Shown here piece by piece: positions 1 through 38,465 of a stretch of 42,402 nucleotides of DNA; the first letter of the stretch is position 1; each line of letters opens with the position of its first letter. The notes below the pieces were generated by a model. That model saw only the letters and a list, made by a program, of their open reading frames with translations, searched no databases and was not told the origin of the DNA. The position numbers were made by a program, and so were the translations under genes. Source of the DNA: Thiomonas intermedia (lineage in GTDB: Bacteria; Pseudomonadota; Gammaproteobacteria; Burkholderiales; Burkholderiaceae_C); contig NZ_CP020047.1 in the NCBI RefSeq assembly GCF_002028405.1, forward strand, positions 1-42,402, given 5' to 3'.

Positions 1-681
1 ATGGCGACAAAGAAAGCAGACACCCCGGCCGCGCCGGTCAAGGTGGCCCGCATCTACATGCGGGTCAGCACTGACGCGCAGGACTTGGCCCGGCAAGAGG
101 CCATCGCCACGTCGGCCAGGGCGGCGGGCTACTACGTCGCCGGCATCTACCGCGAAAAGGCGTCGGGCGCTCGCGCGGATCGCGTCGAGCTGCTGCGCAT
201 GATTGATGATCTGCAACCCGGTGAAGCCGTGGTTGCGGAGAAAATCGACCGCATCAGCCGCTTGCCCCTGGAAGACGCCGAAAAGTTGGTGGCCTCGATC
301 CGCGCGAAGGGCGCACGTCTGGCGGTGCCCGGCATCATCGACCTGGGCGAACTGGCGGCCGGCACGCAGGGCGTGGCCCGCATCGTCCTCGAGTCGGTGC
401 AAGACATGCTCTTGAAGCTGGCCTTGCAAATGGCGCATGACGACTACGAAGACCGGCGCGAACGCCAGCGCCAGGGCATCGAATTGGCGAAGGCTGCGGG
501 CCGCTACGCCGGCCGCACGCCTGACACGGCCATGCACGAACGCATCGCGGCACTGCGAGCGGGCGGCAACAGCATCGCGGAAACCGCGAAGCTGGCCGGG
601 TGCAGTCAAAGCCAAGTCAAGCGCGTGTGCGCGCTGCTGCGGGCGCACGCTGGCGACAAAGGCGAGCTGGCCAGGACGTGA
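1..681 (+). CDS. Serine recombinase (resolvase/invertase family)
   Basis: Small serine site-specific recombinase of 226 residues, expected to resolve plasmid multimers. Residues 15-25 hold the family start YMRVST with nucleophile Ser23; KIDRISRLPLED (about 81-92) fits the conserved catalytic-domain region; the C-terminal part (about 180-210, AETAKLAGCSQSQVKRV) reads as a helix-turn-helix. If the molecule is circular the frame stays open upstream: ATG at 42376 would add nine residues. The start at base 1 has an AAAGG Shine-Dalgarno-like stretch about 8 bases before it across the join, and a likely promoter at 42340-42367 lies too close for the upstream ATG, so base 1 is preferred. Its stop codon lies inside a 44-bp repeat element (650-693). 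No cognate res site was identified. Confidence 0.9.
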   Translation: MATKKADTPAAPVKVARIYMRVSTDAQDLARQEAIATSARAAGYYVAGIYREKASGARADRVELLRMIDDLQPGEAVVAEKIDRISRLPLEDAEKLVASIRAKGARLAVPGIIDLGELAAGTQGVARIVLESVQDMLLKLALQMAHDDYEDRRERQRQGIELAKAAGRYAGRTPDTAMHERIAALRAGGNSIAETAKLAGCSQSQVKRVCALLRAHAGDKGELART

Positions 682-693
682 GGCTGTCACCAT
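650..693. repeat. 44-bp palindrome-ended element, copy 1
   Basis: Ends CTGGCGACA and TGTCACCAT; core contains GAGCTGGCCAGG. It spans the 3' end and stop codon of the resolvase gene, so it supplies the last coding residues. Confidence 0.75.
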
Positions 694-712
694 CGCAAGA
701 CAGCTTCAGCGC
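694..712 (+). repeat. Solitary iteron-like sequence
   Basis: CGCAAGACAGCTTCAGCGC matches the oriV iterons at 33746-33877 in 17 of 19 positions and directly abuts 44-bp element copy 1. It is far from oriV and may be an extra RepA binding site or a relic. Confidence 0.55.
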
Positions 713-713
713 G

Positions 714-736
714 AAAAAAAACCCGGTCGAACCGGG
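714..736 (-). terminator. Rho-independent terminator of the leftward small-gene operon
   Basis: Read on the minus strand, CCCGGT, a 3-base loop and ACCGGG are followed by eight T. It sits just past the stop of the 758-997 gene. Confidence 0.75.
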
Positions 737-757
737 CAAGACATCGGCATTCTGCGG

Positions 758-997
758 TCACTCGAAGCCGGCCGGGGCATCGAAGAACGAAGGGCCGGGC
801 ACGGCCTGGACGTACTCGAAGGCATAGCCGAAATCGTCGTCATGATCTTGCCCGGACGTGTCGCCCGCCTTGAGCCGTGCAAGCACGGTTTCAAGCTGGG
901 CGACGATGGCGGCTTTGTCGCTGTGCCGCGTGCCCTGTAGCTTGATCGTCAGTTGCTGCAAGGGGTAGGCGTGCGCGATCCAGTTTTCATTGCTCAT
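758..997 (-). CDS. Hypothetical protein, 79 aa
   Basis: I do not recognise this gene. It encodes a small acidic soluble protein beginning MSNENWIAHAYPL, with an Asp-rich stretch (GQDHDDDFGYAFEY) near residues 50-62. The start at 997 is chosen because GGAGA lies about 7 bases upstream; a longer reading to 1063 would overlap the upstream gene and lacks such a site. It is the last gene of the leftward run of small genes from 3572 and is followed by a clear terminator. No signal peptide or membrane segment is visible. Function unknown. Confidence 0.6.
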   Translation of the reverse strand: MSNENWIAHAYPLQQLTIKLQGTRHSDKAAIVAQLETVLARLKAGDTSGQDHDDDFGYAFEYVQAVPGPSFFDAPAGFE

Positions 998-1022
998 TGG
1001 TGGTTCTCCTGTGGTTGGTGGG

Positions 1023-1400
1023 TCAAAGACCGGGCGGGCAATCTGGCGACGACAGCGAGACAACGGCCTTCACCTCGCCATTGCAAAACGGGCTGTTCTT
1101 CATCTTGTAGGCGCGCGTCATCTTGACGGCGGCCGTCTTGTCGTTCTTGATGCGCTGCTCGATGTCGCGCAGCTCGGACAGCTTGGCCGGCGACGGCTCC
1201 GGGAACGCCTTTCGCCAGTCGCTGGCGAACTCGCTCACGGCGGCGTCATTCATGGCCTGTAGGCCGGTCAAGATGGCGTCCTGGCTCTCGATGCGCTGCG
1301 CTGCATAGCGGGCCTGCTCGGCGCGCTCGTCCGACCCGCCAAGGTCAACCAGCGCGGCAACCGCGACGAAGGCCAGGACAACCAAAATCAGTTTGAACAT
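1023..1400 (-). CDS. Membrane-anchored hypothetical protein, 125 aa
   Basis: Not recognised. Residues 2-18 (LILVVLAFVAVAAL) form one hydrophobic segment, so the protein is probably anchored in the inner membrane or exported, with the remaining charged, helical region (about 22-125) in the periplasm. Two Cys lie near the C-terminus (PFCNGE, SPDCPPGL) and could pair. The start is supported by GAGG about 8 bases upstream. It lies between a lipoprotein gene (1411-1635) and the 79-aa gene in the same leftward run, which suggests a cell-envelope role, perhaps surface or entry exclusion, but that is a guess. Confidence 0.65.
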   Translation of the reverse strand: MFKLILVVLAFVAVAALVDLGGSDERAEQARYAAQRIESQDAILTGLQAMNDAAVSEFASDWRKAFPEPSPAKLSELRDIEQRIKNDKTAAVKMTRAYKMKNSPFCNGEVKAVVSLSSPDCPPGL

Positions 1401-1410
1401 GGGCGGAACC

Positions 1411-1635
1411 TCACTTCTTCTTCCAATCGACGTAAGAGGGGCGAATCACGATGTTCGGATTGAACATCAGGCCGCGCGGGGTGACATTGACGCCCAGCGA
1501 ACCGGACACGGGCAGGCCGCCAATGTTGTGCATGCGGTAGCCGGTGCCGCCGTAGTAGTACGGGCCGCCGTTCGTGGCGCAGCCACTGAGAACGGCCAGC
1601 AGCAGGGGCAGGGCGATCATGCGCAGGGTCTTCAT
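1411..1635 (-). CDS. Small lipoprotein, 74 aa
   Basis: A predicted lipoprotein: residues 1-19 are a short signal peptide ending in the lipobox LSGC, giving a mature protein starting at Cys19. The mature part is rich in Gly and Tyr (GGPYYYGGTGYRMHN) and ends in KKK. A good ribosome site (GGAGA, about 10 bases upstream) supports the start at 1635. Function unknown; small plasmid lipoproteins next to transfer genes often act in exclusion or outer-membrane assembly, but nothing here shows which. Confidence 0.7.
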   Translation of the reverse strand: MKTLRMIALPLLLAVLSGCATNGGPYYYGGTGYRMHNIGGLPVSGSLGVNVTPRGLMFNPNIVIRPSYVDWKKK

Positions 1636-2350: not shown

Positions 2351-2775
2351 TGCATTGCCCTTGCTTTGGTGACTGGTGCATCGAGGCCTGGCGGCGTTTC
2401 TGTCGCCAAGTCGAGTAGATCGAGCTGGGGCAGCTTCGCGCGGGCCTTGGCGGCCTTGCGCTCGGCCTTCTGCTGTTCCCACTTGCGCGACGACTCGCGC
2501 AGCTCGGCGGCGTACTGCTCGCGGTGCGCGCGGTCGCGTGCATCCTGCCGGGCGCGCAGCGTCGGCAAGAGCAAGCGGCGAAAACAGGGGTTCCAAGTGA
2601 ACACCGACCACCACGCGCCGTTATGCGGGCGATAGGCCGGGTTCGTCTCGGCGCACTTGCGCCAGAACGCCACCAGTCGCGCCCGCTCGGCCAGAAGGTC
2701 GATGCCCTGGCCGCGCCGCAATGCCTGCCGGCGTGCCCGCACGGCCTTTGCTTCGGTGGTGTCTGCGTAGCGCAT
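2347..2775 (-). CDS. Hypothetical basic protein, 142 aa
   Basis: Not recognised. A strongly basic, helical protein: an Arg-rich N-terminus (AVRARRQALRRGQG), an aromatic stretch (NGAWWSVFTWNPCFRRLLLP, about 52-71), then a long charged helix (about 75-115) rich in Arg, Lys, Glu and Ala. AAGGGG lies upstream of the ATG at 2775. Its 3' end contains 44-bp element copy 2 (2366-2409), so the last residues (ETPPGLDAPVTKARA) may be element-derived and not part of the ancestral protein. DNA or RNA binding is possible from composition only. Confidence 0.55.
   Translation of the reverse strand: MRYADTTEAKAVRARRQALRRGQGIDLLAERARLVAFWRKCAETNPAYRPHNGAWWSVFTWNPCFRRLLLPTLRARQDARDRAHREQYAAELRESSRKWEQQKAERKAAKARAKLPQLDLLDLATETPPGLDAPVTKARAMQ
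2366..2409. repeat. 44-bp palindrome-ended element, copy 2
   Basis: Ends TTGGTGACT and TGTCGCCAA, core GCATCGAGGCCTGGCGGCG. Almost the same as the copy in virD4 (21808-21851), differing at only a few positions. Inside the 3' end of the 142-aa gene. Confidence 0.75.
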
Positions 2776-4249: not shown

Positions 4250-4552
4250 TCAAACGATGTAAGAGGGCAGGGCGGCATCGGGGTCGATAGGCCCGGCCAT
4301 CAGCTCGTTGGTTTCGTTGTCGTACACCTCGACCCAATAGCCCTGACGCCAGAAATTCCGCGCGTGCCCGTTGGCCTTGGTGCGATCAATGGCGACGTGG
4401 TAGTCATGCAGATTGCCGCGCTCGGCGGTGTTTTCCGGGTTCGTGACACTGGCCTCGATGCGGTAGCTCTTGAGGTTTTGGGCTTCAACACTTGCTTTGC
4501 TAGATGCTTGAGCCGGGGTGTTTTGCTTTTGAATTTGTGATTGGTGCGTCAT
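4250..4552 (-). CDS. Hypothetical protein with leader duplicated from the ArdC-N gene, 100 aa
   Basis: The first 19 residues (MTHQSQIQKQNTPAQASSK) and all upstream DNA to 5041 are identical to the start of the ArdC-N/DUF3560 gene (36472-37821); after Lys19 the two proteins are unrelated. The remainder (about 25-100) is a small domain with NLHDYHVAIDRTKANGHARNFWRQGYW and ends LPSYIV. The sharp switch from identity to no similarity shows recombination placed one promoter and N-terminus in front of two genes. Start chosen at the shared ATG. Function unknown; shared expression with the antirestriction-like protein is likely. Confidence 0.65.
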   Translation of the reverse strand: MTHQSQIQKQNTPAQASSKASVEAQNLKSYRIEASVTNPENTAERGNLHDYHVAIDRTKANGHARNFWRQGYWVEVYDNETNELMAGPIDPDAALPSYIV

Positions 4553-5041
4553 GTCGGTATCCGCCTTTCGTTGTGTGAACTTGCTTCGCTGAGTGCCTTT
4601 CGCCGTGAAGCCCGTAGGTGGGCCGGACAGGACAGCGCGGAAAGGGAGAAACCGGAAGCCGCAGCGCAAGGGAGCGCAGCGAGTGCGAACGGGTGAGGAT
4701 TTCAGGGCGCAGCCCGGCCCTTGGAGCGATGGCATGGCCGGACTACCGTTTAGGGCAGGCGAAAGGTATTCAGCGAAGCCGCACAACCCGCAGCAAGGCG
4801 GCCTGGACGTGACCACGGCCTAATTCAGCGGGAACCGCTGTAACAGGCGGGCAGCGCCCGCCTTGGGGTGTTCAAGGGCGTAAGCCCGGTGGCAGTCTCG
4901 GAACGAGTCTGCCGGTGTCCCTGGAACGCGGCGATTCATCGCGGCGTGGCCTGGAAGGGCAAAGCCCGGTGATGGTGACAACAGATCCGCCGGCGCCGGC
5001 GGGATCTGTCACCAAGGCGGCGGGCCTGGGTCTTTGGTGAC
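4491..5041. repeat. 551-bp direct repeat, copy A
   Basis: Appears identical base for base to 37760-38310 (offset 33269). Includes the first 19 codons of the 100-aa gene, its leader, and 44-bp element copy 3. The right end falls inside copy 4 of the 44-bp family. Confidence 0.9.
4972..5015. repeat. 44-bp palindrome-ended element, copy 3
   Basis: Ends ATGGTGACA and TGTCACCAA; the core is the perfect palindrome GCCGGCGCCGGC with flanking AGATC/GATCT. The same element occurs at 38241 and, inverted, at 25672. Confidence 0.8.
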
Positions 5042-5077
5042 AAAAAGGAGCTGGCCAGGTCGCCGCGGTGTCTCCAA
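5034..5077. repeat. 44-bp palindrome-ended element, copy 4
   Basis: Ends TTGGTGACA and TGTCTCCAA, core GGAGCTGGCCAGG. Nearly identical to copy 20 (38363) and inverted copy 13 (25611). The 551-bp duplication ends at its eighth base. Confidence 0.75.
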
Positions 5078-5330: not shown

Positions 5331-5372
5331 TTGGTGACAGAACTGGCTTTTTTGTCGTCTTTTGGTCGCCAA
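5331..5372. repeat. Palindrome-ended element, copy 5 (42 bp)
   Basis: Ends TTGGTGACA and GGTCGCCAA; the only copy that is 42 and not 44 bp. Its T-rich core differs from the others. Confidence 0.55.
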
Positions 5373-5387
5373 AACGCTATAATTTGG
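5369..5387 (+). promoter_or_regulatory. 19-bp operator with -10, between two 44-bp elements
   Basis: CCAAAACGCTATAATTTGG with TATAAT at 5378-5383. Overlaps the end of element copy 5 and the start of copy 6. What it transcribes is unclear; the next rightward gene starts at 5671. Confidence 0.45.
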
Positions 5388-5427
5388 CGACAGGAAGGGG
5401 CAACCAGGGCGGTAGGGCTGTCGCCAA
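5384..5427. repeat. 44-bp palindrome-ended element, copy 6
   Basis: Ends TTGGCGACA and TGTCGCCAA (perfect inverted 9-mers). Confidence 0.7.
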
Positions 5428-6096: not shown

Positions 6097-6858
6097 ATGT
6101 TGGAATTTCTGGCACTCGCGCAAGAGTGCGCCCCGACGGTAGCGCCGCAGACTATGGCGGCCGTCGTCAACGTCGAGTCGAGCTATAACCCCTACGCAAT
6201 CGGCGTTGTCGGCGGGCGGCTCGCTCGGCAACCCAAGAGCCGCGAAGAAGCCGTAGCGACGGCGCAGCAGCTCGAAAACGATGGTTGGAATTTTTCGCTG
6301 GGCGTTGCGCAGGTCAACCGCTACAACCTGCCGAAGTACCAAATCACCTATGAGCAAGCGTTCGACGCTTGCACCAGTCTTCGGGTCGGCTCGAAGATTC
6401 TCGAAGACTGCTACGTTCGCGCCTCCAAGCGCACGCCAGAGCCACAAGCCGCGTTGCACGCGGCTTTCTCCTGCTACTACTCGGGAAACTTCACTCGCGG
6501 CTTCAAGCCCGACGTGGCCGGCAAACCCAGCTACGTGCAAAAGGTGCTTGCCAGCGCCGGGGTGCAGCCGCAGGCAATCCCTGTAGTCCCGTCGATCCAG
6601 ACGGGCAGCGGCCCCAAGCCGCAGTTTGACAAGGCGGCCGGCGCAGCGGCCCCGGCTGCTCTCAAAGCTCAACCCGCACAACCGGCCGCATTGCCTTCGG
6701 ACAATGCGCCGGTTTTGCTGCGTCCGAAAACTGCCGACAGCGGGGCGGCGAAGCTGCAACCGTTGGCGACTGGCGCAGCTCCTGGCCAGCCCGAAGGTGT
6801 CGCCAATGAAGCACCGGCCGACAAGCCCGCGCCGGCCAGCTCGGCCATAGTTTTCTAA
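6097..6858 (+). CDS. virB1: VirB1-type lytic transglycosylase
   Basis: Peptidoglycan-cleaving enzyme that opens the wall for assembly of the type IV secretion channel, 253 residues. The SLT fold is visible: VVNVESSYNPYAIGVV with catalytic Glu27, FSLGVAQVNRYN (about 67-78) and the C-terminal AAFSCYYSGN motif of the family. Residues about 165-253 are a Pro/Ala-rich tail; it contains 44-bp element copy 7 (6763-6806), so part of the tail may be element-derived. No cleavable signal peptide is obvious; the start has GGAGA upstream. First gene of the operon with topA. Confidence 0.92.
   Translation: MLEFLALAQECAPTVAPQTMAAVVNVESSYNPYAIGVVGGRLARQPKSREEAVATAQQLENDGWNFSLGVAQVNRYNLPKYQITYEQAFDACTSLRVGSKILEDCYVRASKRTPEPQAALHAAFSCYYSGNFTRGFKPDVAGKPSYVQKVLASAGVQPQAIPVVPSIQTGSGPKPQFDKAAGAAAPAALKAQPAQPAALPSDNAPVLLRPKTADSGAAKLQPLATGAAPGQPEGVANEAPADKPAPASSAIVF
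6763..6806. repeat. 44-bp palindrome-ended element, copy 7 (inside virB1)
   Basis: Ends TTGGCGACT and TGTCGCCAA, core AGCTCCTGGCCAGC. Encodes LATGAAPGQPEGVAN in the disordered tail of VirB1. Confidence 0.65.
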
Positions 6859-13209: not shown

Positions 13210-13253
13210 TTGGCGACAGGAGCCGCGCCACCTGGTGCGGCTTCTGTCACCAT
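13210..13253. repeat. 44-bp palindrome-ended element, copy 8
   Basis: Ends TTGGCGACA and TGTCACCAT. The arms extend inward (GCCGCGCCACC/GGTGCGGC), so the RNA could form a long hairpin between virB5 and eex. Confidence 0.75.
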
Positions 13254-19079: not shown

Positions 19080-19138
19080 GGGGCATGCGGGCGAAGGCCA
19101 TCAGCCAGGATCAGCGCGCCTTGTGCGCGCTGTTTGCG

Positions 19139-19182
19139 TTGGTGACAACGGATCTTCCTCGATCGCGTGATTCTGTCGCCAT
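19139..19182. repeat. 44-bp palindrome-ended element, copy 9
   Basis: Ends TTGGTGACA and TGTCGCCAT, core TCCTCGATCGCGTGATTC. The 368-bp duplication begins at its 18th base. Confidence 0.75.
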
Positions 19183-19523
19183 CGGGAACCCTCCGCGCTT
19201 CGCTTGGGCAACCGCTTCGGTTGCATCCCGCGTCGGTTCTTGCCCGACTGTCTGCGGGGGCAGGCGCTGCGGGCGTTGCCCTTGTCCTACCCCCTTGCCG
19301 ATAGGCTCTATGGCCTCCATCAGCATCAAGGGTGAAGGCTTCGCCCGCCATCCTCACCCGTTCGGTGCTCGCCCTGCGGGCTGCGCTCCGCGTGCGGCCT
19401 CCGGTGTCGCCCTTGACGCCGATTCCAGCCAGGACACGGCCACGGCCCCGACGTGGACGGGAACGAAAAACCCGGCGCGCTGGCCGGGTCGGTTTGGTGA
19501 CGGCCGCGAGCTGGCCAGGTCGT
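19156..19523. repeat. 368-bp direct repeat, copy A
   Basis: Appears identical to 33955-34322 (offset 14799). Starts inside element copy 9 and ends inside copy 10. Contains a leftward terminator-like hairpin (19466-19489). Non-coding. Confidence 0.9.
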
Positions 19524-19537
19524 CGCATCGTCACCAA
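19494..19537. repeat. 44-bp palindrome-ended element, copy 10
   Basis: Ends TTGGTGACG and CGTCACCAA, core CGAGCTGGCCAGGTCGT. Shares its first 30 bases with copy 17 (34293), then differs. Confidence 0.75.
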
Positions 19538-19561: not shown

Positions 19562-19605
19562 TTGGCGACAACTCTCTGCAACCTGGTGGCGTGGCCCGTC
19601 ACCAA
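19562..19605. repeat. 44-bp palindrome-ended element, copy 11
   Basis: Ends TTGGCGACA and CGTCACCAA, core CAACCTGGTGGCG. Lies 22 bp before virD4. Confidence 0.75.
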
Positions 19606-19626: not shown

Positions 19627-22131
19627 ATGGAAATGCCAAAGTGGCTTAAATGGGTGTTGGGCGTGGTGGTGTTCATCGCCGCCACGGTCGGCGCTGTCTG
19701 GCTGGCCGGCTTCTTCTTCTTCGCTTTCAGCAAGACGAACCCGTTCGGCAAAACCGACTTCTCGACGTGGTGGACGTACTGGCAGTTTTACCAAGCTGAC
19801 CCGGTGATTGCGAAGCGCCTCAAGGTGTCGGGCATCGTGGCCGCCGTGGTGGCCTACGGTGCCCCCATCGTGGCACTGATTGCCGCTATGCGCGAAGTGC
19901 GTTCGCTGCATGGTGAAGCCCGCTTCGCCAATGCCGGCGAGATTGAAAAGGCTGGGCTGTTCGGCAATACCGGCATCATCATCGGCAAGCTGAAAAACCG
20001 CTTCTTGATGTTCGCGGGCATGCAGTTCGTCTTGCTGGCCGCGCCGACTCGCTCGGGCAAGGGCGTCGGAATCGTGGTGCCGAACCTGCTCAACTACAGC
20101 GAATCGGCCGTCGTCCTCGATGTGAAGCTGGAAAACTTTCTCATCACGTCGAAGTTCCGGGCCAAGCACGGCCAGGAAGTGTTTTTGTTCAATCCGTTTT
20201 CCAAGGATGGGCAAACGCATCGCTACAACCCGCTGGGCTACATCAGCGACGATCCACGCCAGCGCGTGACGGAAATCTTGGCAATCGGCTATGCCCTGTA
20301 TCCGGGCGGCGGCAAAGACACGTTCTTTGACGATGCGGCTCGAAACCTGTTCCTGGGCCTGTGCCTCTACCTTTGCGAAACGCCGGCATTGCCGCGCACC
20401 ATCGGCGAGCTGCTGCGCCAGTCCTCGGGCAAGGGCCAGCCCATCAAAAAGTATCTGCAAGACCTGATTACCGCCCGGAATTTCAGGGAAGAAACCACCA
20501 TTGACGACGACGGCGAAGAAGTCGTGACGCTGGTTCCGATTGAGCAATGGGACGGCGAAGGCTTGCCGCCGCTGTCGATGGAATGCGTTGACGCACTGAA
20601 CCGCTTCACGTCCACGTCGGACAACACCTTGTCGAGCATCCTGGCATCGTTCAACGTGCCGTTGACCATTTGGGTTAGCCCGCTGGTCGATGCCGCTACG
20701 GCCGCGAACGACTTCGACGTTCGGGACGTGCGCAAGAAGCGCATGACGATCTACATCGGCATTCCGGCAAACAAGCTGGCCGAAGCCGAGTTGCTGATTA
20801 ACCTGTTCTTCTCGCAGTTGATTAACCTCAACACCGACGATCTGCTGCACTCGAAACCTGAGCTGAAATATTCCTGCCTGCTGCTCATGGATGAGTTTGC
20901 CGCGCCCGGCCGAATCGGCATCATCGACAAGGCAAACGCCTACATGGCCGGCTACGGTCTGCGGCTGCTGACCATCATCCAGTCGCCCGGCCAGATCGAG
21001 GCCGAACCACGCAAGGGCTATGGTCGTGAAAGCGCGCGCACGCTGATAACGAACCACGCTTGCCAGATCATCTACACGCCACGCGAGCAAAAGGACGCGA
21101 ACGAGTATTCGGAAATGCTCGGCACCTACACGTTCAAGGCCAAGGGTCTAAGTCGCCAGCTCGGCGGCAAGGCGGCCGGTGGTCGAAGCGAATCCGAGTC
21201 GGATCAAAAGCGGGCGTTGCTCATGCCGCAAGAACTCAAGGAAATGAGTCAGCGGCAACAGATCATCAACCTTGAAAACACCAAGCCCATCAAGTGCGAA
21301 AAGATCGCCTACTTTCAGGATCACGTCTTTATCGACCGCCTCAAGTCGGTTGCGCCGTCGCTGGCAAAGCTCGGCAAGAAACTGCCGACGAAAAAGCAGC
21401 TTGAAGACTCTTGGGGTTCCGGTGAATGCGCCGTCGATGTGCCATACCTGAACCTTGATCTGCATGAAGCGGTCGTGCAGGCCCGCACGCGCGAACTGAA
21501 GCCGGCCGACGTGGCGAAGGGCATCGACCTTCGCACGCTGGCCCTGGACTTCTCCAAGGTGCCATTGCCCGAAGGTGCAGGCATCGAGCCGGAACAGGTG
21601 GAAGCGTTCGTTGACGGCTTCTTTGACGCCCTGGACGCGACAAACAGCTACGACGACAGCGAAGCGCCGGAAGTGGATGAAGACGGGGCCAGCGAACGCC
21701 CAAGCGATGACGAACTTGCGGCGCTGGATGCGCAGGCGGCCGACGACGACGGGCAGGAAGTCGCGGTGAATAGCATTGAGCCGGCCGACGACGAACCGGC
21801 CGACGAATTGGTGACAAGTGCATCGAGGCCTGGCGGCGCTTCTGTCGCCAAGCCTGAAACGCACGCGGAACCTGAACCCGAACCGGATCACGGCCTTGGT
21901 CATGACCAAGCCGACATTGAGCCGGACGGGCCTACGGACGAAGACCTTGCCGCAATGATGGAAGACTTCACGCCACCCGATGACGGGATGATGGATGAAG
22001 CCGACATGCTGGCCGCACTGGATGAAATGGAAGCGGTGCCGGAGTATGTCGAGGAAGCCGAAAATGACGCGCCAATACTCGATTTGAGCGTGCTTGACAA
22101 GCCCCTTCCTTCAATCAAAAATGCGGAATAG
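19627..22131 (+). CDS. virD4: VirD4/TraG coupling protein
   Basis: Type IV coupling protein (834 residues) that brings the relaxase-DNA complex to the channel. Two N-terminal membrane segments (about 8-35 and 58-82), Walker A PTRSGKGVG with Lys145, Walker B LLLMDEFAAPGRIG. The C-terminal 170 residues are an acidic, low-complexity extension. It contains 44-bp element copy 12 and, 43 bp further on, the palindrome at 21895-21910. AAGGA lies 8 bases before the ATG at 19627; a longer start at 19591 would run through the element region. Confidence 0.94.
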   Translation: MEMPKWLKWVLGVVVFIAATVGAVWLAGFFFFAFSKTNPFGKTDFSTWWTYWQFYQADPVIAKRLKVSGIVAAVVAYGAPIVALIAAMREVRSLHGEARFANAGEIEKAGLFGNTGIIIGKLKNRFLMFAGMQFVLLAAPTRSGKGVGIVVPNLLNYSESAVVLDVKLENFLITSKFRAKHGQEVFLFNPFSKDGQTHRYNPLGYISDDPRQRVTEILAIGYALYPGGGKDTFFDDAARNLFLGLCLYLCETPALPRTIGELLRQSSGKGQPIKKYLQDLITARNFREETTIDDDGEEVVTLVPIEQWDGEGLPPLSMECVDALNRFTSTSDNTLSSILASFNVPLTIWVSPLVDAATAANDFDVRDVRKKRMTIYIGIPANKLAEAELLINLFFSQLINLNTDDLLHSKPELKYSCLLLMDEFAAPGRIGIIDKANAYMAGYGLRLLTIIQSPGQIEAEPRKGYGRESARTLITNHACQIIYTPREQKDANEYSEMLGTYTFKAKGLSRQLGGKAAGGRSESESDQKRALLMPQELKEMSQRQQIINLENTKPIKCEKIAYFQDHVFIDRLKSVAPSLAKLGKKLPTKKQLEDSWGSGECAVDVPYLNLDLHEAVVQARTRELKPADVAKGIDLRTLALDFSKVPLPEGAGIEPEQVEAFVDGFFDALDATNSYDDSEAPEVDEDGASERPSDDELAALDAQAADDDGQEVAVNSIEPADDEPADELVTSASRPGGASVAKPETHAEPEPEPDHGLGHDQADIEPDGPTDEDLAAMMEDFTPPDDGMMDEADMLAALDEMEAVPEYVEEAENDAPILDLSVLDKPLPSIKNAE
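21808..21851. repeat. 44-bp palindrome-ended element, copy 12 (inside virD4)
   Basis: Ends TTGGTGACA and TGTCGCCAA. Encodes LVTSASRPGGASVAK in the disordered C-terminal tail. Closest relative is copy 2 at 2366. Confidence 0.75.
21895..21910. promoter_or_regulatory. Palindrome CTTGGTCATGACCAAG (candidate ParB/KorB site)
   Basis: Perfect 16-bp palindrome inside virD4, encoding LGHDQ. The same 14-bp core occurs beside oriT (29449) and in parB (30458). Confidence 0.6.
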
Positions 22132-25610: not shown

Positions 25611-25654
25611 GTGGTGACACCGCGGCAACCTGGCCAGCTCGCTTTTGTCGCCAT
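25611..25654. repeat. 44-bp palindrome-ended element, copy 13
   Basis: Ends GTGGTGACA and TGTCGCCAT. Core CAACCTGGCCAGCTC is the reverse complement of that in copies 4 and 20. Confidence 0.75.
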
Positions 25655-25671: not shown

Positions 25672-25715
25672 ATGGTGACAGATCCCGCCGGCGCCGGCGG
25701 ATCTGTTGTCACCAA
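25672..25715. repeat. 44-bp palindrome-ended element, copy 14
   Basis: Ends ATGGTGACA and TGTCACCAA. Exact reverse complement of copies 3 and 18 through the core. Confidence 0.8.
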
Positions 25716-25743: not shown

Positions 25744-25787
25744 TTGGTGACAAAACCCGCGCCCTGGTCGGCCCGGGTTGTCGCCAA
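25744..25787. repeat. 44-bp palindrome-ended element, copy 15
   Basis: Ends TTGGTGACA and TGTCGCCAA; core CGCGCCCTGGTCGGCCCGGG. Third in an array with copies 13 and 14, spacers 17 and 28 bp. Confidence 0.75.
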
Positions 25788-25837
25788 TGCTCTGTTCAAG
25801 TCATTTGCGCCGTGGCTGGGAATGCACACCACGGATG

Positions 25838-25856
25838 CGCAAGACAGTTTCAGCGC
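25838..25856 (+). repeat. Solitary iteron-like sequence
   Basis: CGCAAGACAGTTTCAGCGC differs from an oriV iteron (33768-33786) at one base. Lies just upstream of the promoter of the OmpA-like gene. Confidence 0.65.
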
Positions 25857-25865
25857 GCCTTATGA

Positions 25866-29448: not shown

Positions 29449-29462
29449 TTGGTCATGACCAA
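29449..29462. promoter_or_regulatory. Palindrome TTGGTCATGACCAA beside oriT
   Basis: Perfect 14-bp palindrome, also found in virD4 and parB. Candidate ParB/KorB site. Confidence 0.6.
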
Positions 29463-31219: not shown

Positions 31220-32011
31220 TTATTGAACCTCCATGATTGAAGCGATTTTTTCAAATACCGGCTTGATCTGCGTCCACGCATCGCGGCCGCTGGTCTTACC
31301 GAGTTTCCAAACTGGCACGCCTGCGGCCTGGGCTTCGGGCACGGCCGTAGTCTTCTTAATCGCGGCAAAACCTGCATCCATCGGGATCAGTAGCTTGGCG
31401 AAGTGCGTCGAAAGCTCGCGGAAGTTATCGCGCTGGAAGGGCGTCGGCTCCACCAGATTCGGCAGGATGCCAATCAATTCCAACTTGGGATTGATCGCGG
31501 CCTTGATCTTGCGAATGCCGATGGTGTCGTGATTGAGCAAGTCGCCGATACCGTCGATGGCCTCCTGGTTCAATTGCAGCGGCGACAGAACGTAGTCGCT
31601 GACCACCAGCGACGAAAGCTGTCGAATGTCCGGGTTCGGGTTGGTGTCGATGATGCAAACATCGAAGTCGTTATGCACGGCTTGCAGAAACGATTGCAGG
31701 TTCGACGCGAAGCTGTTGTGCCTGTCGGCCTGCTTTTCCATTTTCAGCAGCTCGGCGTTATCAGCCGCCACCAAGACAAATTCAGCGTCTTCCACGCCGC
31801 CGACCTTGTGAGTCAAAAGGCGGCTGGCCGGCATCTGCGACACGGTGGCAATGCCTCCGGTCTTGATCGCCTTCGAGCTGTTGCGTTGGTGGTCGAAGTC
31901 GATCACCAAAACGCGCTTGCCCATGATGAGGTGGAAAAAGTAGGCCAACTGGACGGCCACGGCCGACTTGCCCACGCCGCCCTTTTGGTTTGCGAGAACT
32001 GTAGTTTTCAT
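31220..32011 (-). CDS. parA: ParA/IncC-family partition ATPase
   Basis: 263 residues starting directly with the deviant Walker A: MKTTVLANQKGGVGKSAVAV (Lys10, Lys15). VLVIDFDHQRNSS and CIIDTNPNPDIRQL are the further ParA motifs. It lacks an N-terminal DNA-binding domain, so it is a small (type Ib or IncC2-like) ParA. It moves plasmid copies with ParB. An iteron-like sequence overlaps the coding region (31771-31788). Overlaps the KorA-like gene by four bases. Confidence 0.92.
   Translation of the reverse strand: MKTTVLANQKGGVGKSAVAVQLAYFFHLIMGKRVLVIDFDHQRNSSKAIKTGGIATVSQMPASRLLTHKVGGVEDAEFVLVAADNAELLKMEKQADRHNSFASNLQSFLQAVHNDFDVCIIDTNPNPDIRQLSSLVVSDYVLSPLQLNQEAIDGIGDLLNHDTIGIRKIKAAINPKLELIGILPNLVEPTPFQRDNFRELSTHFAKLLIPMDAGFAAIKKTTAVPEAQAAGVPVWKLGKTSGRDAWTQIKPVFEKIASIMEVQ
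31771..31788 (+). repeat. Iteron-like sequence inside parA
   Basis: CCAAGACAAATTCAGCGT; 15 of 17 positions match the iteron core CAAGACACTTTCAGCGT. Confidence 0.4.
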
Positions 32012-32406
32012 GCCCGAATGCTCCTTAAAAAAGTCCGAACTGTTGTCGGTGAAGTGGATACGCCGTTTTCTTTGAGAAACGCCACGATCTGGTCAACCGT
32101 GTAACCCTTGTCCCGAAGGGTCTGCATCTGCGCGGAATACGGCTCAAGTGCTGAACTCGCCAATTTGGGTTTTTCCCGGCTCATGAATTCTTCAATGCGC
32201 AGGTCTTCGGCCTTGGCGAGAAAACGGCCACGAATCACGTTCGCTTGCTGCGGTGACATCGTGTGTGCCGCTGCCGCCTCGGACAGCGACACACCTTCAA
32301 CGATCAACGCTTTTGCAACGCCCAAGGAACGCTCTGACCATCTTTTGCATTTGGACGCCACGCGCTCAAATTGCGCGGCATCCATCCTTGGGGCAGGGGA
32401 TGTCAT
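32008..32406 (-). CDS. korA: KorA/TrfB-family transcriptional repressor
   Basis: 132 residues. The stretch WSERSLGVAKALIVEGVSLS followed by HTMSPQQANVIRGRF (about 22-62) matches the TrfB/KorA helix-turn-helix region. The C-terminal part (about 93-132, LRDKGYTVDQIVAFLKENGV) is longer than in RP4 KorA and looks like a second helical DNA-binding-like module. It is the best candidate to bind the 19-bp CCAAGAT operators, by inference. Encoded between ssb and parA, coupled to both. Confidence 0.75.
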   Translation of the reverse strand: MTSPAPRMDAAQFERVASKCKRWSERSLGVAKALIVEGVSLSEAAAAHTMSPQQANVIRGRFLAKAEDLRIEEFMSREKPKLASSALEPYSAQMQTLRDKGYTVDQIVAFLKENGVSTSPTTVRTFLRSIRA

Positions 32407-32887: not shown

Positions 32888-33937
32888 AGGGCAAACCCTA
32901 GTAATAAGCGGCTTTTGCGGCAATCGTCAGCAGCAGGCACCACGGAAAACCGCCATGCGAACGCAAACGGCCATAGAACGCGATTTAAGCGCCTTTCGCC
33001 CTTGCCGCACCCTCGGTATCGGGACGGTCAAGAAAGGGCCGTGGCGGGCCTCCTGCGCAGGCTACGGGGCACAATCGAGGGCAGGGCAAGCCCCTTCTTC
33101 CTGATAGACGGTTTTTTGCGGCCTCTCGATCACCACGAACCTTTCCGGCATGGCGCGCACACGCGCCGGGCTGAGCGGGCGGCCGACTTGTCGGCCGGGC
33201 GTGATTTGTCCCGGTCTTAGCGCCCCGCAGGGGTGGCCGCTTGCGGCCATGCCGGCCGGCTTGCCGGTCGGGACGCTTAGACCATGCCTTACCTCGGCCG
33301 TCGAACTGCAACGCGCGGCAAGTGCCGCGCTTCGTTCTTCACGTCCTGGCCGTAGGCCAGCCGTTAGATGCCTTCTGGCTGTTTGGCTGTTGGTTTTGGA
33401 TTTCCTCGGCCTGTGTGCCCAGGTGATGCCTGTTCCTGGCTGCGGCGGTGGTGCCGCACCGCGCGGCAAGTGCCGCGCTTAGATCGGCATGGCCGAAGGC
33501 CATCCATTGTTCAGGCCGGCGCGAAGCGACGGGGCGCAGGGAGCGAAGCGACCGGAGGGTAGGCGGTGATTGCCGCGCTTCGCGGCAGCTTTTTCGACGT
33601 TGTTCACAACGGCGGCGGCTCCAACTACTAGGTATATTTTTTAAAGGAAAAAAAAACCTAAAGGCAAGAACTACAGGGGGGAAGCCACACGACGGCCAGA
33701 ATAGCCAATGCTGGTAAGGCTTTGCGCGCTTTTTGGGCTTCGGATCGCAAGACACTTTCAGCGTAAACGCAAGACAGTTTCAGCGTAACGCGCAAGACAC
33801 TTTCAGCGTGCGTTTCTGTGGATAGCGGATTTAATGCCTTACGAATCAACGGCTTGCGTGCAAGACACTTTCAGCGTGGATAACTTTCGTCATCCACAAG
33901 GTTATGCACAAGCAAGCGCCAGAATTGGGCGTCTTGG
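32888..33937. other. Probable oriV region, gene-free
   Basis: About 1 kb without a credible gene. GC-rich hairpins (GCGCGGCA-AG-TGCCGCGC at 33313-33330 and 33461-33478, and 33573-33589) precede an AT-rich segment (33631-33660), four iterons (33746-33877) and four DnaA-like boxes (33817-33825, 33875-33883, 33889-33897, and TTATGCACA at 33902-33910). The repA gene lies about 5 kb away. Confidence 0.75.
33746..33877 (+). repeat. Four 19-bp iterons of oriV
   Basis: CGCAAGACACTTTCAGCGT at 33746, a copy with one change at 33768, a perfect copy at 33791, and TGCAAGACACTTTCAGCGT at 33859. The first three are spaced 22 and 23 bp, two helical turns; the fourth is 68 bp on. Likely RepA binding sites. 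Confidence 0.85.
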
Positions 33938-33981
33938 TTGGTGACGGCGGCCTGTCCTCGATCGCGTGATTCTGTCGCCAT
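33938..33981. repeat. 44-bp palindrome-ended element, copy 16
   Basis: Ends TTGGTGACG and TGTCGCCAT. Identical to copy 9 from the 18th base on. Confidence 0.75.
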
Positions 33982-34322
33982 CGGGAACCCTCCGCGCTTC
34001 GCTTGGGCAACCGCTTCGGTTGCATCCCGCGTCGGTTCTTGCCCGACTGTCTGCGGGGGCAGGCGCTGCGGGCGTTGCCCTTGTCCTACCCCCTTGCCGA
34101 TAGGCTCTATGGCCTCCATCAGCATCAAGGGTGAAGGCTTCGCCCGCCATCCTCACCCGTTCGGTGCTCGCCCTGCGGGCTGCGCTCCGCGTGCGGCCTC
34201 CGGTGTCGCCCTTGACGCCGATTCCAGCCAGGACACGGCCACGGCCCCGACGTGGACGGGAACGAAAAACCCGGCGCGCTGGCCGGGTCGGTTTGGTGAC
34301 GGCCGCGAGCTGGCCAGGTCGT
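33955..34322. repeat. 368-bp direct repeat, copy B
   Basis: Same as 19156-19523. Lies between oriV and kfrA. Confidence 0.9.
34265..34288 (-). terminator. Terminator of the kfrA transcript
   Basis: On the minus strand ACCCGGC, 6-base loop, GCCGGGT and TTTTT. The same hairpin is present in the other repeat copy (19466-19489), where no leftward gene needs it. Confidence 0.7.
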
Positions 34323-34336
34323 GAAGCTGTCGCCAA
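34293..34336. repeat. 44-bp palindrome-ended element, copy 17
   Basis: Ends TTGGTGACG and TGTCGCCAA. Directly abuts the stop codon of kfrA. Confidence 0.75.
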
Positions 34337-35811: not shown

Positions 35812-36204
35812 TCAGTTGCCGGCCAGATAGCGGCGGGCTTCGCGCAGTGCCTCGGCGATGCGGCGCACGCGACATTCAAGGGCCGAATGCTGCGCGGCCA
35901 GTCGGTCGTATTGCTCGGCGCGCACGATGCCGGCGCGGGCCTCCTCGATCCGCTCGGAGTCGCAGCCGACGTAATCGCGGCGGCGCGGCTCGCCGTTCTT
36001 CTGCGGGTACAGCAGATAGAAGTATTTCGGCTGGCCGTCCGAACCCTTGCGCCAATGCTCCGTTGCGTAGATCAAGCCCGCCTTTTTCAGCGCGGCCATG
36101 CCGGCGACAACCTCGGCAATCTCGCCTTCCAAGGTGTCGATCAGGCCGGGCACGTCGGCCGCCAGCTTCGCCAGCTCGGCCGTGTGGTTCTTCTTCGTTG
36201 CCAT
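35812..36204 (-). CDS. Hypothetical protein, 130 aa, KfrA neighbourhood
   Basis: Not named with confidence. An N-terminal helical part (AELAKLAADVPGLIDTLEGE) is followed by a small aromatic region with KYFYLLYPQKNGEPRRRDYVG (about 60-80) and a C-terminal helix. The pattern of helix, short aromatic DNA-contact-like stretch and helix is seen in small plasmid regulatory proteins, but no family is assigned. It follows the 60-aa membrane gene by three bases. Confidence 0.6.
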   Translation of the reverse strand: MATKKNHTAELAKLAADVPGLIDTLEGEIAEVVAGMAALKKAGLIYATEHWRKGSDGQPKYFYLLYPQKNGEPRRRDYVGCDSERIEEARAGIVRAEQYDRLAAQHSALECRVRRIAEALREARRYLAGN

Positions 36205-36452: not shown

Positions 36453-36485
36453 CCAAATTATACCATCTTGGTTAGTGCGCGTCAC
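36453..36485 (-). promoter_or_regulatory. 19-bp operator and promoter of the 36390-35474 genes
   Basis: On the minus strand CCAAGATGGTATAATTTGG with -10 TATAAT, and a weak -35 GTGACG 17 bp upstream inside the end of the ArdC-N gene. Confidence 0.7.
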
Positions 36486-37821
36486 CAACTTTGGCAACAT
36501 TAAAACGCTCTATCACCTGCTTGGCTGCCCAGATTCCGGCGTTGTTCAACTGCCGCACCCACGCGCCCCGACTTGGCGACCATTTGAAGGCTTCACGCTT
36601 CAAGATGGCGCGGGTTGCCTCGTCCGGCTTGCCGTCGAAAATGAACATCACGCGGTTTTCGGTGGTGTCCTCGCGGTAGGTGTAGCCGTCGCCGGCCTTC
36701 TCCACGTCGGCCCGCTGGCTGCGCTTCTCCAGCTCGGCAATGCGGCCCTTGATGCGGGTCATGTTGGCGTTGTTGTTCGACAAGGCATAGGACGGGAAAC
36801 CGACACGGCGGGCAAAGTCCGGCTTGATCGCCTCGGCCGCCTGGGCTTCGGTGAAGCCAAGGGCCACAAGGGCGGCGGTCTGCGTTTCCGGTGTTTTGTT
36901 CGCACGAATGGCCTTGTTCGCGGCCTTCATCATCTCTTGCGACTTCTCGGCGCTTGCCAGCTCGGCGCGCAGCTTCTTGATGGCGTCCGGGTCATCGCTG
37001 GAAATGCCACCAGTGCCCACGCTCGCGGCCTTCTGTGCGTAGTGCGCTGCCTTGTCCTGGGCGGCAAAGGCTTTGCCGAAGGTGTTGTGAATCCGGTTGC
37101 GATAGTTGCGGTCGCGGCCTTCGCTGTGGTGCCCGACAAGGATCGGTTGCCCGAAGGGGATCACCTCGGCCATACCACGCGCCCGGCTATACAGTGCCCG
37201 GCTTTCGTCCTGGGCCTTGCCTGCACGCGCTTCGTACCGTTCGCGCTTGGCCTCAATGCGTGCCTCGTAGGCGTTCAATTCGCGCGGTTCGTCGGCCGCT
37301 GCCGGCTCGGCCTGCTCGATCACGGCCACGGCTTGCGCTGCTGCCTGCTCGGCGGCCTCCGGCGCTGCTTCTGGTGCTTCGGCTTCCTCGGTCACGGCGT
37401 CGGCGCTGGCCTTCTCGTCGGTCGGTTCGCCTCCGATTTCCTCGGTCTGTGAAACGTGAAAAACGGTCGTGGTCTTAACCTTCTTCACCGGCACTTCGTC
37501 GCCTGTCTCGCGGTCTTTCTTGGTGCAAGGAATCACGGTCACAATCTTGACGCCATGCTGTCCCTTCTTCACCACGCGGCCCAGCGCCTTCCACGCATTG
37601 AAGGTAAACACGTTCACGCGCGGTTCAACGTCGGCCATGTCGATGCCCATCGCGGCGAACCCGTCGAAGATCGCTTGATAGTTCGCAAGGCTTTCACCAG
37701 ACACGGCATTTTCAAGGGCTTTCTGTTGCAGCTCGGCCTTTGGTTTTTGGCTGTTGAACCTTGCTTTGCTAGATGCTTGAGCCGGGGTGTTTTGCTTTTG
37801 AATTTGTGATTGGTGCGTCAT
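36472..37821 (-). CDS. ArdC-N/DUF3560 fusion protein, 449 aa
   Basis: N-terminal ArdC-type ssDNA-binding domain (about 35-105: FTFNAWKALGRVVKKGQHGVKI), an acidic Ala/Glu-rich linker (about 130-185), then a DUF3560 region (about 185-330: EARIEAKRERYEARAGKAQD and PILVGHHSEGRDRNYRNRI). The end (about 385-449) includes FKWSPSRGAWVRQLN. The usual ArdC metalloprotease domain (HExxH) is absent. ArdC protects incoming DNA from restriction; here that role is inferred from the first domain only. Starts in the 551-bp repeat. Confidence 0.8.
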   Translation of the reverse strand: MTHQSQIQKQNTPAQASSKARFNSQKPKAELQQKALENAVSGESLANYQAIFDGFAAMGIDMADVEPRVNVFTFNAWKALGRVVKKGQHGVKIVTVIPCTKKDRETGDEVPVKKVKTTTVFHVSQTEEIGGEPTDEKASADAVTEEAEAPEAAPEAAEQAAAQAVAVIEQAEPAAADEPRELNAYEARIEAKRERYEARAGKAQDESRALYSRARGMAEVIPFGQPILVGHHSEGRDRNYRNRIHNTFGKAFAAQDKAAHYAQKAASVGTGGISSDDPDAIKKLRAELASAEKSQEMMKAANKAIRANKTPETQTAALVALGFTEAQAAEAIKPDFARRVGFPSYALSNNNANMTRIKGRIAELEKRSQRADVEKAGDGYTYREDTTENRVMFIFDGKPDEATRAILKREAFKWSPSRGAWVRQLNNAGIWAAKQVIERFNVAKVGDAH

Positions 37822-38310
37822 GTCGGTATCCGCCTTTCGTTGTGTGAACTTGCTTCGCTGAGTGCCTTTCGCCGTGAAGCCCGTAGGTGGGCCGGACAGG
37901 ACAGCGCGGAAAGGGAGAAACCGGAAGCCGCAGCGCAAGGGAGCGCAGCGAGTGCGAACGGGTGAGGATTTCAGGGCGCAGCCCGGCCCTTGGAGCGATG
38001 GCATGGCCGGACTACCGTTTAGGGCAGGCGAAAGGTATTCAGCGAAGCCGCACAACCCGCAGCAAGGCGGCCTGGACGTGACCACGGCCTAATTCAGCGG
38101 GAACCGCTGTAACAGGCGGGCAGCGCCCGCCTTGGGGTGTTCAAGGGCGTAAGCCCGGTGGCAGTCTCGGAACGAGTCTGCCGGTGTCCCTGGAACGCGG
38201 CGATTCATCGCGGCGTGGCCTGGAAGGGCAAAGCCCGGTGATGGTGACAACAGATCCGCCGGCGCCGGCGGGATCTGTCACCAAGGCGGCGGGCCTGGGT
38301 CTTTGGTGAC
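37760..38310. repeat. 551-bp direct repeat, copy B
   Basis: Same as 4491-5041. Contains the first 19-20 codons and leader of the ArdC-N gene. Confidence 0.9.
38241..38284. repeat. 44-bp palindrome-ended element, copy 18
   Basis: Identical to copy 3; part of the 551-bp repeat. Confidence 0.8.
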
Positions 38311-38346
38311 GCGGCCGCGTCCTCGATCGGCTGTTTCTGTCACCAC
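38303..38346. repeat. 44-bp palindrome-ended element, copy 19
   Basis: Ends TTGGTGACG and TGTCACCAC, core TCCTCGATCGGCTGTTTC. The 551-bp repeat ends at its eighth base. Confidence 0.75.
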
Positions 38347-38362
38347 GCCGGGACGGCTCTTT

Positions 38363-38406
38363 TTGGCGACAAAAAGGAGCTGGCCAGGTTGCCGCGGTGT
38401 CTCCAA
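38363..38406. repeat. 44-bp palindrome-ended element, copy 20
   Basis: Ends TTGGCGACA and TGTCTCCAA. Almost identical to copy 4. Confidence 0.75.
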
Positions 38407-38421
38407 GCGGTCGGCTTGCCG

Positions 38422-38465
38422 GTGGTGACAAATGTTGGCCACCTGGTGCGGCGCAGCGTCACCAA
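38422..38465. repeat. 44-bp palindrome-ended element, copy 21
   Basis: Ends GTGGTGACA and CGTCACCAA, core GGCCACCTGGTGCGGC. Last of four in tandem, spacers 18, 16 and 15 bp. Confidence 0.75.

What the first reader, a model, noticed from the sequence alone, without database searches (positions are those of the whole stretch)
650..38465. Dispersed family of 21 fixed-length 44-bp elements
Twenty copies are exactly 44 bp and one is 42 bp. All run from about TTGGYGACR to about YGTCRCCAA around a 26-bp core with recurring palindromic centres (CTGGCCAG, GCCGGCGCCGGC, CACCTGGTG, CGATCG). Starts: 650, 2366, 4972, 5034, 5331 (42 bp), 5384, 6763, 13210, 19139, 19494, 19562, 21808, 25611, 25672, 25744, 33938, 34293, 38241, 38303, 38363, 38422. 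Both orientations occur. Constant length with variable cores is unlike ordinary REP sequences or operators; a recombination site, MITE-like unit or nucleoprotein site are all possible. I know no named family that fits.
Basis: seen in the sequence. Interest (0 to 1): 0.88.

Follow-up and report, generated by a model that had tools for sequence, protein, structure and literature searches.

The report
Dispersed 44-bp plasmid docking sites
A conjugative plasmid carries about twenty fixed-length paired DNA motifs, mostly between its genes, and plasmids of other kinds that carry such arrays nearly always encode the same small protein of unknown function, which points to an undescribed plasmid-wide protein-DNA control system.

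Summary
Confirmed: the window, a PromA-beta conjugative plasmid, has 20 copies of TGGYGAC-N28-GTCRCCA (42 bp; 44 with edge bases) and one 40-bp version; shuffles give none. Twelve PromA plasmids of four subgroups have 15-24 copies, each with exactly one 40-bp copy; in 10 of 10 compared plasmids the short copy (41 bp in one) precedes a -10-like box near the transfer operon. Sites are mostly intergenic (67 of 78; 9 expected) with class-specific cores. Arm pairing is not conserved, so they look like double-stranded protein sites. KorB, KfrA and KorA fail co-occurrence. One gene fits: orf131 (35812-36204, minus), 130 aa, no known family. In 399 genomes, the six with 6 or more exact copies are the six with strong orf131 matches (some by construction). 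Plasmids then picked by orf131 (Comamonas, Diaphorobacter, Vibrio, an IMG/VR contig) carry arrays; Vibrio keeps 42 bp with one arm base changed (TGGTCAC). In six plasmid contigs of about four types, not in the window, an element overlaps the orf131 3' end. Best reading: dispersed operator-like docking sites of an undescribed protein. Binding and function are untested; structure prediction never ran. Two draft genomes have two or three elements without orf131.

The parts
650..693 (.). 44-bp element, core CTGGCCAG; overlaps the stop codon of the resolvase gene
2366..2409 (.). 44-bp element, core ATCGAGGCCTGG; inside a minus-strand ORF near its 3' end
4972..5015 (.). 44-bp element, core GCCGGCGCCGGC
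5034..5077 (.). 44-bp element, core CTGGCCAG
5331..5372 (.). the single short variant (40 bp arm to arm) with AT-rich core; TATAAT follows at 5378-5383, 5 bp after its end
5384..5427 (.). 44-bp element directly after the -10-like box, upstream of the trbA-like/tra operon
6763..6806 (.). 44-bp element inside traA near its 3' end
13210..13253 (.). 44-bp element, traF-traG spacer
19139..19182 (.). 44-bp element, core CCTCGATCG, traM-traN spacer; left end of long repeat A
19494..19537 (.). 44-bp element, core CTGGCCAG; right end of long repeat A
19562..19605 (.). 44-bp element, core ACCTGGTGG, before traN
21808..21851 (.). 44-bp element inside the 3' part of traN
25611..25654 (.). 44-bp element, core CTGGCCAG, traP-traQ spacer
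25672..25715 (.). 44-bp element, core GCCGGCGCCGGC
25744..25787 (.). 44-bp element, core CCCTGGTC
33938..33981 (.). 44-bp element, core CCTCGATCG; long repeat A, second copy
34293..34336 (.). 44-bp element abutting the kfrA stop codon
38241..38284 (.). 44-bp element, core GCCGGCGCCGGC, 5' of the ardC-orf61-orf131-kfrA gene run
38303..38346 (.). 44-bp element, core CCTCGATCG; no equivalent in pSFA231 and pYKCT011-2
38363..38406 (.). 44-bp element, core CTGGCCAG
38422..38465 (.). 44-bp element, core CACCTGGTG
35812..36204 (-). orf131: 130-aa orphan protein, proposed binder of the elements
   Evidence: no usable family match
19138..19537 (.). long direct repeat A, first copy; identical stretch 19156-19523 starts and ends inside elements
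33937..34336 (.). long direct repeat A, second copy; identical stretch 33955-34322

Best explanation
The 44-bp elements are double-stranded docking sites for the product of the orphan gene orf131 (window 35812-36204, minus strand). Shown: arrays of arm-spacer-arm sites of constant 41-42 bp length in plasmids of several different backbones; near-perfect co-occurrence with orf131 homologues, tested in both directions; a changed arm in the plasmid with the most divergent homologue; mostly intergenic positions. Inferred: an Orf131 oligomer contacts the two TGGYGAC arms, 35 bp or about 3.3 helical turns apart, so spacing is rigid, while a secondary contact reads the class-specific core. Inferred function: a plasmid-wide regulator that autoregulates its own gene run (four sites lie 5' of ardC-orf61-orf131-kfrA in the window; sites lie between orf131 and the replication gene in the Comamonas and Diaphorobacter plasmids) and holds the transfer promoter through the one off-register site beside its -10-like box; the clusters elsewhere act as silencing or insulating nucleoprotein blocks between operons.
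For: Array and geometry. Association: searches scanned the same 399 genomes; the six with 6 or more exact sites (22, 21, 18, 9, 7, 6) are the six with strong orf131 matches (E 1e-65 to 1e-37); the other 393 have 0-4 sites and no match beyond a 37-residue fragment at 1.8e-4. Array first, gene second: G560 (array, orf131), G649 and G712. Gene first, array second: Comamonas 10 sites, Diaphorobacter 9 at 42 bp plus 2 at 41, IMG/VR contig L207 6 at 41 bp, Vibrio 7 exact TGGTCAC-N28-GTGACCA; 20 shuffles of each of these four reach at most 2-3 copies of any such 6-mer pair, against 5-8 observed. Of 52 pYKCT011-2 gene products used as stand-ins for the window's genes, orf131 alone is found in 11 of 11 element plasmids, and it is in 0 of 5 without. 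An element overlaps the orf131 3' end in the G560, G712, G649, Comamonas, Diaphorobacter and Vibrio contigs. Intergenic: 67 of 78 in five plasmids, 9.1 expected. Arm positions 5 and 40 vary independently, with C-A in 29 of 153 (Fisher p 0.11). A TAnAnT box follows the short variant in 10 of 10 plasmids with a clear variant, read by eye, no control.
Against: No binding datum exists. No DNA-binding fold was recognised in orf131 by sequence and its structure could not be predicted. G746 contig C4 has three good elements and G463 two or three, with no orf131 found in either draft genome. The profile A2 used contains the window, the G560 sequence and a gamma-plasmid sequence nearly identical to those of G107 and G422, so those four matches are by construction, and G712's protein is identical to G560's; the independent match there is G649. 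G560, G712 and Comamonas share one plasmid type, so the discriminating cases outside PromA are about five. The 11-of-11 count includes plasmids chosen because they encode orf131, and orf131 was searched with more queries than other genes. The element overlap with the orf131 3' end is not seen in the window or pSB102. Most sites are not at recognised promoters, so the regulatory role is inferred; in pMRAD02 and pXAC47 no element lies within about 3 kb of the ssb-korA-incC-korB genes. The element-free comparison plasmids were scanned in part (47 of 55, 49 of 57, 40 of 58 and 40 of 71 kb; RA3 whole).
Confidence: 0.6

Rival explanations
1. Orf131 binds the elements, but the system serves plasmid architecture, segregation or nucleoid tethering (a single-protein system somewhat like StbA of R388, recalled) rather than transcription.
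For: Sites are spread round the plasmid; neighbours in clusters are 45-75 bp apart in 78 of 83 pairs; most lie away from recognised promoters; the Comamonas plasmid has no annotated ParA or ParB but has the array.
Against: Other element plasmids already carry IncC/KorB and a separate KorB-type palindrome; a conserved off-register site sits at a promoter-like box before the transfer operon; no single centromere-like cluster.
Confidence: 0.22
2. The elements are operators of KorA, the two-HTH regulator of the partition operon (window 32008-32406, minus).
For: KorA has two HTH-like parts that could give a bipartite site; in 369 class-level genomes KorA and high element counts coincide in the same 2.
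Against: G560, G649 and G712 have 9, 7 and 6 exact sites; two-HTH KorA was not found in G649 and G712 at E 1e-5 nor in G560 at E 10, apart from an N-terminal-only match. The Comamonas annotation lists no KorA. Distant near-full-length KorA relatives in G695, G420 and G680 come without arrays. No element near the korA genes in pMRAD02 and pXAC47.
Confidence: 0.05
3. KorB/ParB or KfrA sites.
For: Both are DNA-binding plasmid proteins encoded in the window.
Against: A different 14-bp palindrome TTnGTCATGACnAA lies in korB and next to mobC and recurs 12 times in an Acinetobacter ParB plasmid without an array; korB is in 8 of 11 element plasmids. KfrA_N is not found in pSB102, pMRAD02, pUSA011 and the Agrobacterium plasmid, which have 16-23 elements, and is present in RA3, which has none.
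Confidence: 0.03
4. Recombination or cassette-boundary sites: crossover in the cores moves or duplicates element-bounded blocks.
For: Long repeat A is identical from inside one element to inside the next (19156-19523/33955-34322); Vibrio blocks also appear bounded by elements; 10 of 68 alignment-breakpoint bins lie at elements, 2.3 expected.
Against: Those 10 bins come mostly from two clusters; ordinary homologous exchange between repeated 44-mers predicts the same; positions are conserved over deep divergence; parA-type recombinase is in 9 of 11 element plasmids, not all.
Confidence: 0.06
5. RNA-level elements: terminators or protein-binding hairpins at gene ends.
For: Inverted repeats often near gene ends (26 of 78 within 80 bp after a stop, 7.6 expected); GC-rich palindromic cores.
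Against: Pairing across the arms is not maintained; several inner palindromes are off-centre; no Rfam match in window, L209 and L211.
Confidence: 0.02

Closest known systems
KorB/O_B and KorA/O_A global repressor operators of IncP-1 plasmids (site forms recalled)
   Same: A dozen or so sites (recalled) spread over a conjugative backbone, some at promoters
   Different: 12-13 bp palindromes bound by HTH proteins; here a 42-bp arm-spacer-arm site. O_B and full O_A forms were not found in 12 plasmids, the proposed binder is an orphan protein, and KorB has its own separate candidate site
ArdK operators of R388 (KorA family; PMC9723621, passages read)
   Same: Plasmid regulator with paired half-sites at several promoters
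   Different: Close TTGACA direct repeats at five genes' promoters; not 42-bp inverted arms
KfrA operators of R751 and RA3 (PMC7821693, passages; PMC7783346, listing only)
   Same: Long repeat-type site of a plasmid coiled-coil DNA-binding protein
   Different: Described at the kfrA promoter; KfrA_N not found in four element plasmids, and RA3 has no elements
[quoted passage not shown]
   Same: Same kind of plasmids; in the window the long repeats contain elements
   Different: The 44-bp unit, its fixed spacing and its spread to other backbones were not seen in the listings and passages; the original pTer331 and PromA papers are not held

Membership tests
KorB/ParB partition or operator site | Co-occurs with the korB gene | tested here: not met
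   korB in 8 of 11 element plasmids; Comamonas has no ParB listed but has elements; Acinetobacter and Iodobacter with ParB/KorB have no array in the 47 and 49 kb scanned
KorB/ParB partition or operator site | No better candidate site in the same plasmid | tested here: not met
   TTGGTCATGACCAA within korB, near mobC and in traN
KfrA operator | KfrA_N protein encoded by the plasmid | tested here: not met
   not found in 4 element records at E 0.01
KorA operator | Two-HTH KorA encoded | tested here: not met
   G560, G649, G712
MITE or other mobile repeat | Non-orthologous insertion, empty sites with target duplications | tested here: inconclusive
   positions recur across subgroups (against gene tables); units are gained or lost inside clusters; junctions not inspected for duplications
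MITE or other mobile repeat | Related transposase or transposon ends | not tested
   no such search was made
REP-like chromosomal palindrome | Many chromosomal copies | tested here: not met
   18 exact copies in the window and 18 in the whole genome
Replication iterons | Clustered direct repeats at oriV matching the RepA iteron | tested here: not met
   the PromA iteron is a different 17-mer (PMC9499019 passage; repeat family D6)
Dispersed regulator binding site | Physical binding of the cognate protein | not testable with these tools
   genetic association only

The most novel reading that the evidence does not exclude
The cores are an address code: Orf131 holds the common arms while the core class decides which sites pair, so same-class sites in different clusters bridge and fold the plasmid into a set architecture that controls replication, transfer and the separation of operons. 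Clusters hold different classes (5 of 46 clusters from 10 plasmids repeat a class, 20.4 expected; none of 5000 permutations was as low; plasmids are related and classes are by my text rule), and the same classes recur across clusters and across distant plasmids.
Probability: 0.12. Interest if true: 0.92.

Novelty: new variant of a known kind. Interest (0 to 1): 0.78.

Why it matters
PromA plasmids are mostly cryptic, broad-host-range and widely distributed (PMC9499019 passages), and the passages I saw do not say how their backbone genes are controlled. This gives them a candidate master site and a candidate protein, found also in plasmids with other replication and transfer systems, hence a portable control module. 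It offers a direct test: one small protein, one synthetic 44-mer. The fixed spacing with class-specific cores is unusual and could reveal a new DNA-binding fold and a new way to organise plasmid DNA.

Tried and rejected
KorA was an early favourite (co-occurrence in PromA, two HTH-like parts). It fell when G560, G649 and G712 showed arrays without it. KorB: separate palindrome. KfrA: not found in four element records. TrbA-like gene: present in Acinetobacter, which has no array in the part scanned. IncP O_B forms: none in 12 plasmids; an O_A core TTAGCTAA occurs once in each of the two beta-2 plasmids. RNA hairpin: arms do not covary, no Rfam match in window, L209 and L211. ssDNA-promoter idea for the long repeat: fold z-scores -0.76 and -1.11, nothing special. 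Helical phasing of neighbouring sites: weak (lowest Rayleigh p about 0.02, at period 11, of three periods, uncorrected). Iodobacter: no analogous array among the top inverted pairs found de novo in 49 of 57 kb. KorA in viral contigs: none. Core classes were assigned by my own text rules; the window site 38423 and the like pTer331 site were labelled B but look like class A, which would lower the number of repeated-class clusters. In one search HSPs under 150 bp, mostly overlapping HSPs, and indels in alignments under 1000 bp were left out. pSB102 was analysed over its first 50,000 of 55,578 bases (43,435) and pALTS28 over 50,000 of 60,911. In writing up I lowered the main confidence from 0.62 to 0.60, because four of the six matches are members or near-copies of members of the profile and a fifth is identical to one.


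Full report
What was checked. All 21 sites are at the coordinates given. The invariant part is TGGYGAC-N28-GTCRCCA. Exact 7-mer arms occur at 42 bp 18 times and at 40 bp once, with seven single values elsewhere between 14 and 120 bp; 30 first-order shuffles give no site at 0 or 1 mismatch. The window is the second contig of its genome, and the genome total of 18 exact copies equals the window's, so none is on the chromosome. Its first 25 kb are 99.9% identical to pALTS28 and 93-97% to pSFA231, pIPO2T and pTer331 over the parts aligned; pALTS28 is PromA-beta-1 in PMC9499019 (passage).

Conservation. Twelve PromA plasmids including the window, covering alpha, beta-1, beta-2, gamma and delta, hold 15 to 24 copies at 42 bp (at most one arm mismatch) and each has exactly one 40-bp copy (pSB102 and pALTS28 read over 50 kb each). 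Further relatives: pMRAD02 16 plus one 40-bp copy, pXAC47 11 plus one, an Agrobacterium plasmid 19 plus one (47 of 64 kb), pUSA011 17 plus two 41-bp copies, one in the promoter position, and a Stenotrophomonas plasmid with 8 copies at 41 bp and 2 at 42. In 10 of 10 plasmids with a clear short variant a TAnAnT hexamer starts 6 bp after the arm (TATAAT at 5378-5383 in the window); the Stenotrophomonas candidate is unclear, and this was read by eye. An Acinetobacter and an Iodobacter plasmid with related transfer genes show no array in 47 and 49 kb scanned.

Anatomy. Over five plasmids 67 of 78 sites are wholly intergenic, against 9.1 expected, and 5 are wholly coding against 63.8. Core words fall into a few classes (GCCGGCGCCGGC, CTGGCCAG, CCWGG, CGATCG/TCGA, CTGCAG) at nearly fixed positions in 182 distinct 44-mers, many from close relatives. 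Palindromic 6-mers are at observed/expected 1.70 inside the window's elements and 0.48 outside; in two of nine plasmids the inside value is only about 1 (0.94 and 1.03), still above the outside value. Arm positions 5 and 40 vary independently: T-A 84, C-A 29, T-G 24, C-G 16, Fisher p 0.11, which argues against pairing in RNA. Neighbouring sites are 45 to 75 bp apart in 78 of 83 pairs and tend to be of different classes: 5 of 46 clusters repeat a class, 20.4 expected by permutation (plasmids are related, so this is descriptive).

Which protein. A presence table of 14 plasmids left few genes common to element plasmids and missing elsewhere. KorB has its own candidate palindrome TTnGTCATGACnAA inside korB and beside mobC, and other ParB plasmids have other short dispersed palindromes. 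KfrA_N is not found in pSB102, pMRAD02, pUSA011 and the Agrobacterium plasmid and is present in RA3, which has no elements. KorA looked good until the family-level scan. In the same 399 genomes, exact element counts are 22, 21, 18, 9, 7 and 6 in G107, G422, G000, G560, G649 and G712, then 4 or fewer (reversed-pattern control at most 4). Strong two-HTH KorA is only in the first three; nine other genomes have weak, partial or distant matches, and all nine, rescanned, have 0 or 1 exact site except G560 with 9. The orf131 profile strongly matches exactly those six genomes, plus one 37-residue fragment at 1.8e-4 in G523. That profile contains the window, the G560 protein and a near-copy of the G107 and G422 proteins, and G712's protein equals G560's, so G649 is the independent match there; the weight lies in the 393 genomes without a strong match. 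G560's array was seen before its orf131: it sits on a contig with a distant secretion system (VirB11 27% identical), with orf131 49% identical and an element overlapping its stop. G649's plasmid has 12 sites at 42 bp and 6 at 41 bp at up to one mismatch.

Prospective test. tblastn with orf131 returned 65 plasmid records. Outside the set already seen I fetched three: Comamonas (TrfA and Trb type, no KorA, KorB or ParA annotated; same plasmid type as G560 and G712), Diaphorobacter and Vibrio alginolyticus (F-type transfer). All three carry arrays: 10 sites; 9 plus 2; and, in Vibrio, found without using the known arm, TGGTCAC-N28-GTGACCA in 7 exact copies, 10 with up to two mismatches, with at most 4 at any other spacing from 30 to 59. 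The one orf131 relative found in IMG/VR is on a 10-kb contig with 6 sites at 41 bp, one just 5' of the ORF and three over its 3' part. Twenty shuffles of each of these four sequences reach at most 2 or 3 copies of any 6-mer pair, against 5 to 8 observed. The Vibrio protein is the most divergent (29% to the window protein) and has the only array with a changed consensus arm, as expected of a co-evolving pair, though this is one case. RA3 has neither gene nor array. In one search orf131 alone of 52 gene products is in 11 of 11 element plasmids and in 0 of 5 without; the next are traQ (9 of 11; 1 of 5) and parA (9 of 11; 1 of 5).

Results against. G746 contig C4 has three good sites and no orf131 in a draft genome, and G463 has two or three likely sites without it. 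Comamonas, Diaphorobacter, Vibrio and L207 were chosen for orf131, so the 11-of-11 count is partly by construction. The overlap of an element with the orf131 3' end holds in six contigs of about four plasmid types but not in the window or pSB102. orf131 has no family in Pfam, NCBIfam, PHROGs or PDB sequences at usable scores (weak coiled-coil-like matches only), and structure prediction never started.

How it may work. A centre-to-centre arm distance of 35 bp that tolerates 41-42 bp overall but little else suggests a rigid oligomer bridging both arms (inference). Four sites sit 5' of the ardC-orf61-orf131-kfrA gene run in the window; in Comamonas and Diaphorobacter sites lie between orf131 and the replication gene; one off-register site sits at a promoter-like box before the transfer operon. 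I therefore favour a global autoregulated regulator with silencing clusters, and hold architecture or segregation as the main alternative. Long repeats end inside elements (identical stretch 19156-19523/33955-34322; Vibrio blocks), which homologous exchange between elements explains without a dedicated recombinase.

What is in print. [quoted passage not shown] passages of PMC9499019 describe the 17-bp iterons; PMC9723621 describes ArdK sites; PMC4175270 describes the RA3 MobC site and names a KorB site near mobC. The listings show no paper that I could identify as describing the 44-bp element (one search listed 15 of 4,371 papers holding such short words, so it says little); the original pTer331 and PromA papers are not held and may mention it.

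Noticed in passing
window 21896-21909, 29449-29462, 30461-30474: Three copies of TTGGTCATGACCAA, one inside korB and one beside mobC: probable KorB/ParB site of PromA plasmids (TTCGTCATGACGAA in the alpha, gamma and delta plasmids read; TTAGTCATGACTAA-like 12 times in an Acinetobacter plasmid).
   Followed up: partly
window 693-717, 24499-24523, 25837-25861: Solitary RepA iteron-like 17-mers away from the 33767-33882 group, two of them next to elements; in pSB102, the Agrobacterium plasmid and pUSA011 a similar word directly precedes the short-variant site.
   Followed up: no
window 4474-5041 and 37742-38310: Long direct repeat B gives ardC and another ORF nearly the same 5' end and upstream region (99% over 570 bp), ending in an element arm.
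   Followed up: partly
window 40908-41342: The longest tblastn piece of the pYKCT011-2 Fic protein here covers only residues 179-323, so the fic gene beside yacA may be interrupted or shifted; not examined.
   Followed up: no
L139 and L207: Element arrays with 41-bp rather than 42-bp spacing; the G649 and Diaphorobacter plasmids mix both.
   Followed up: partly
G746:C4 6111, 12825, 14219: Three elements of one core class, two of them flanking a kfrA homologue, on a contig without orf131: the clearest exception to the association.
   Followed up: partly
L141 (Iodobacter) and L144 (Paraburkholderia): Other ParB plasmids carry their own dispersed short palindromes: TTGGAA-n-TTCCAA 9 times and TTTCGC-n4-GCGAAA 10 times in the parts scanned.
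   Followed up: no
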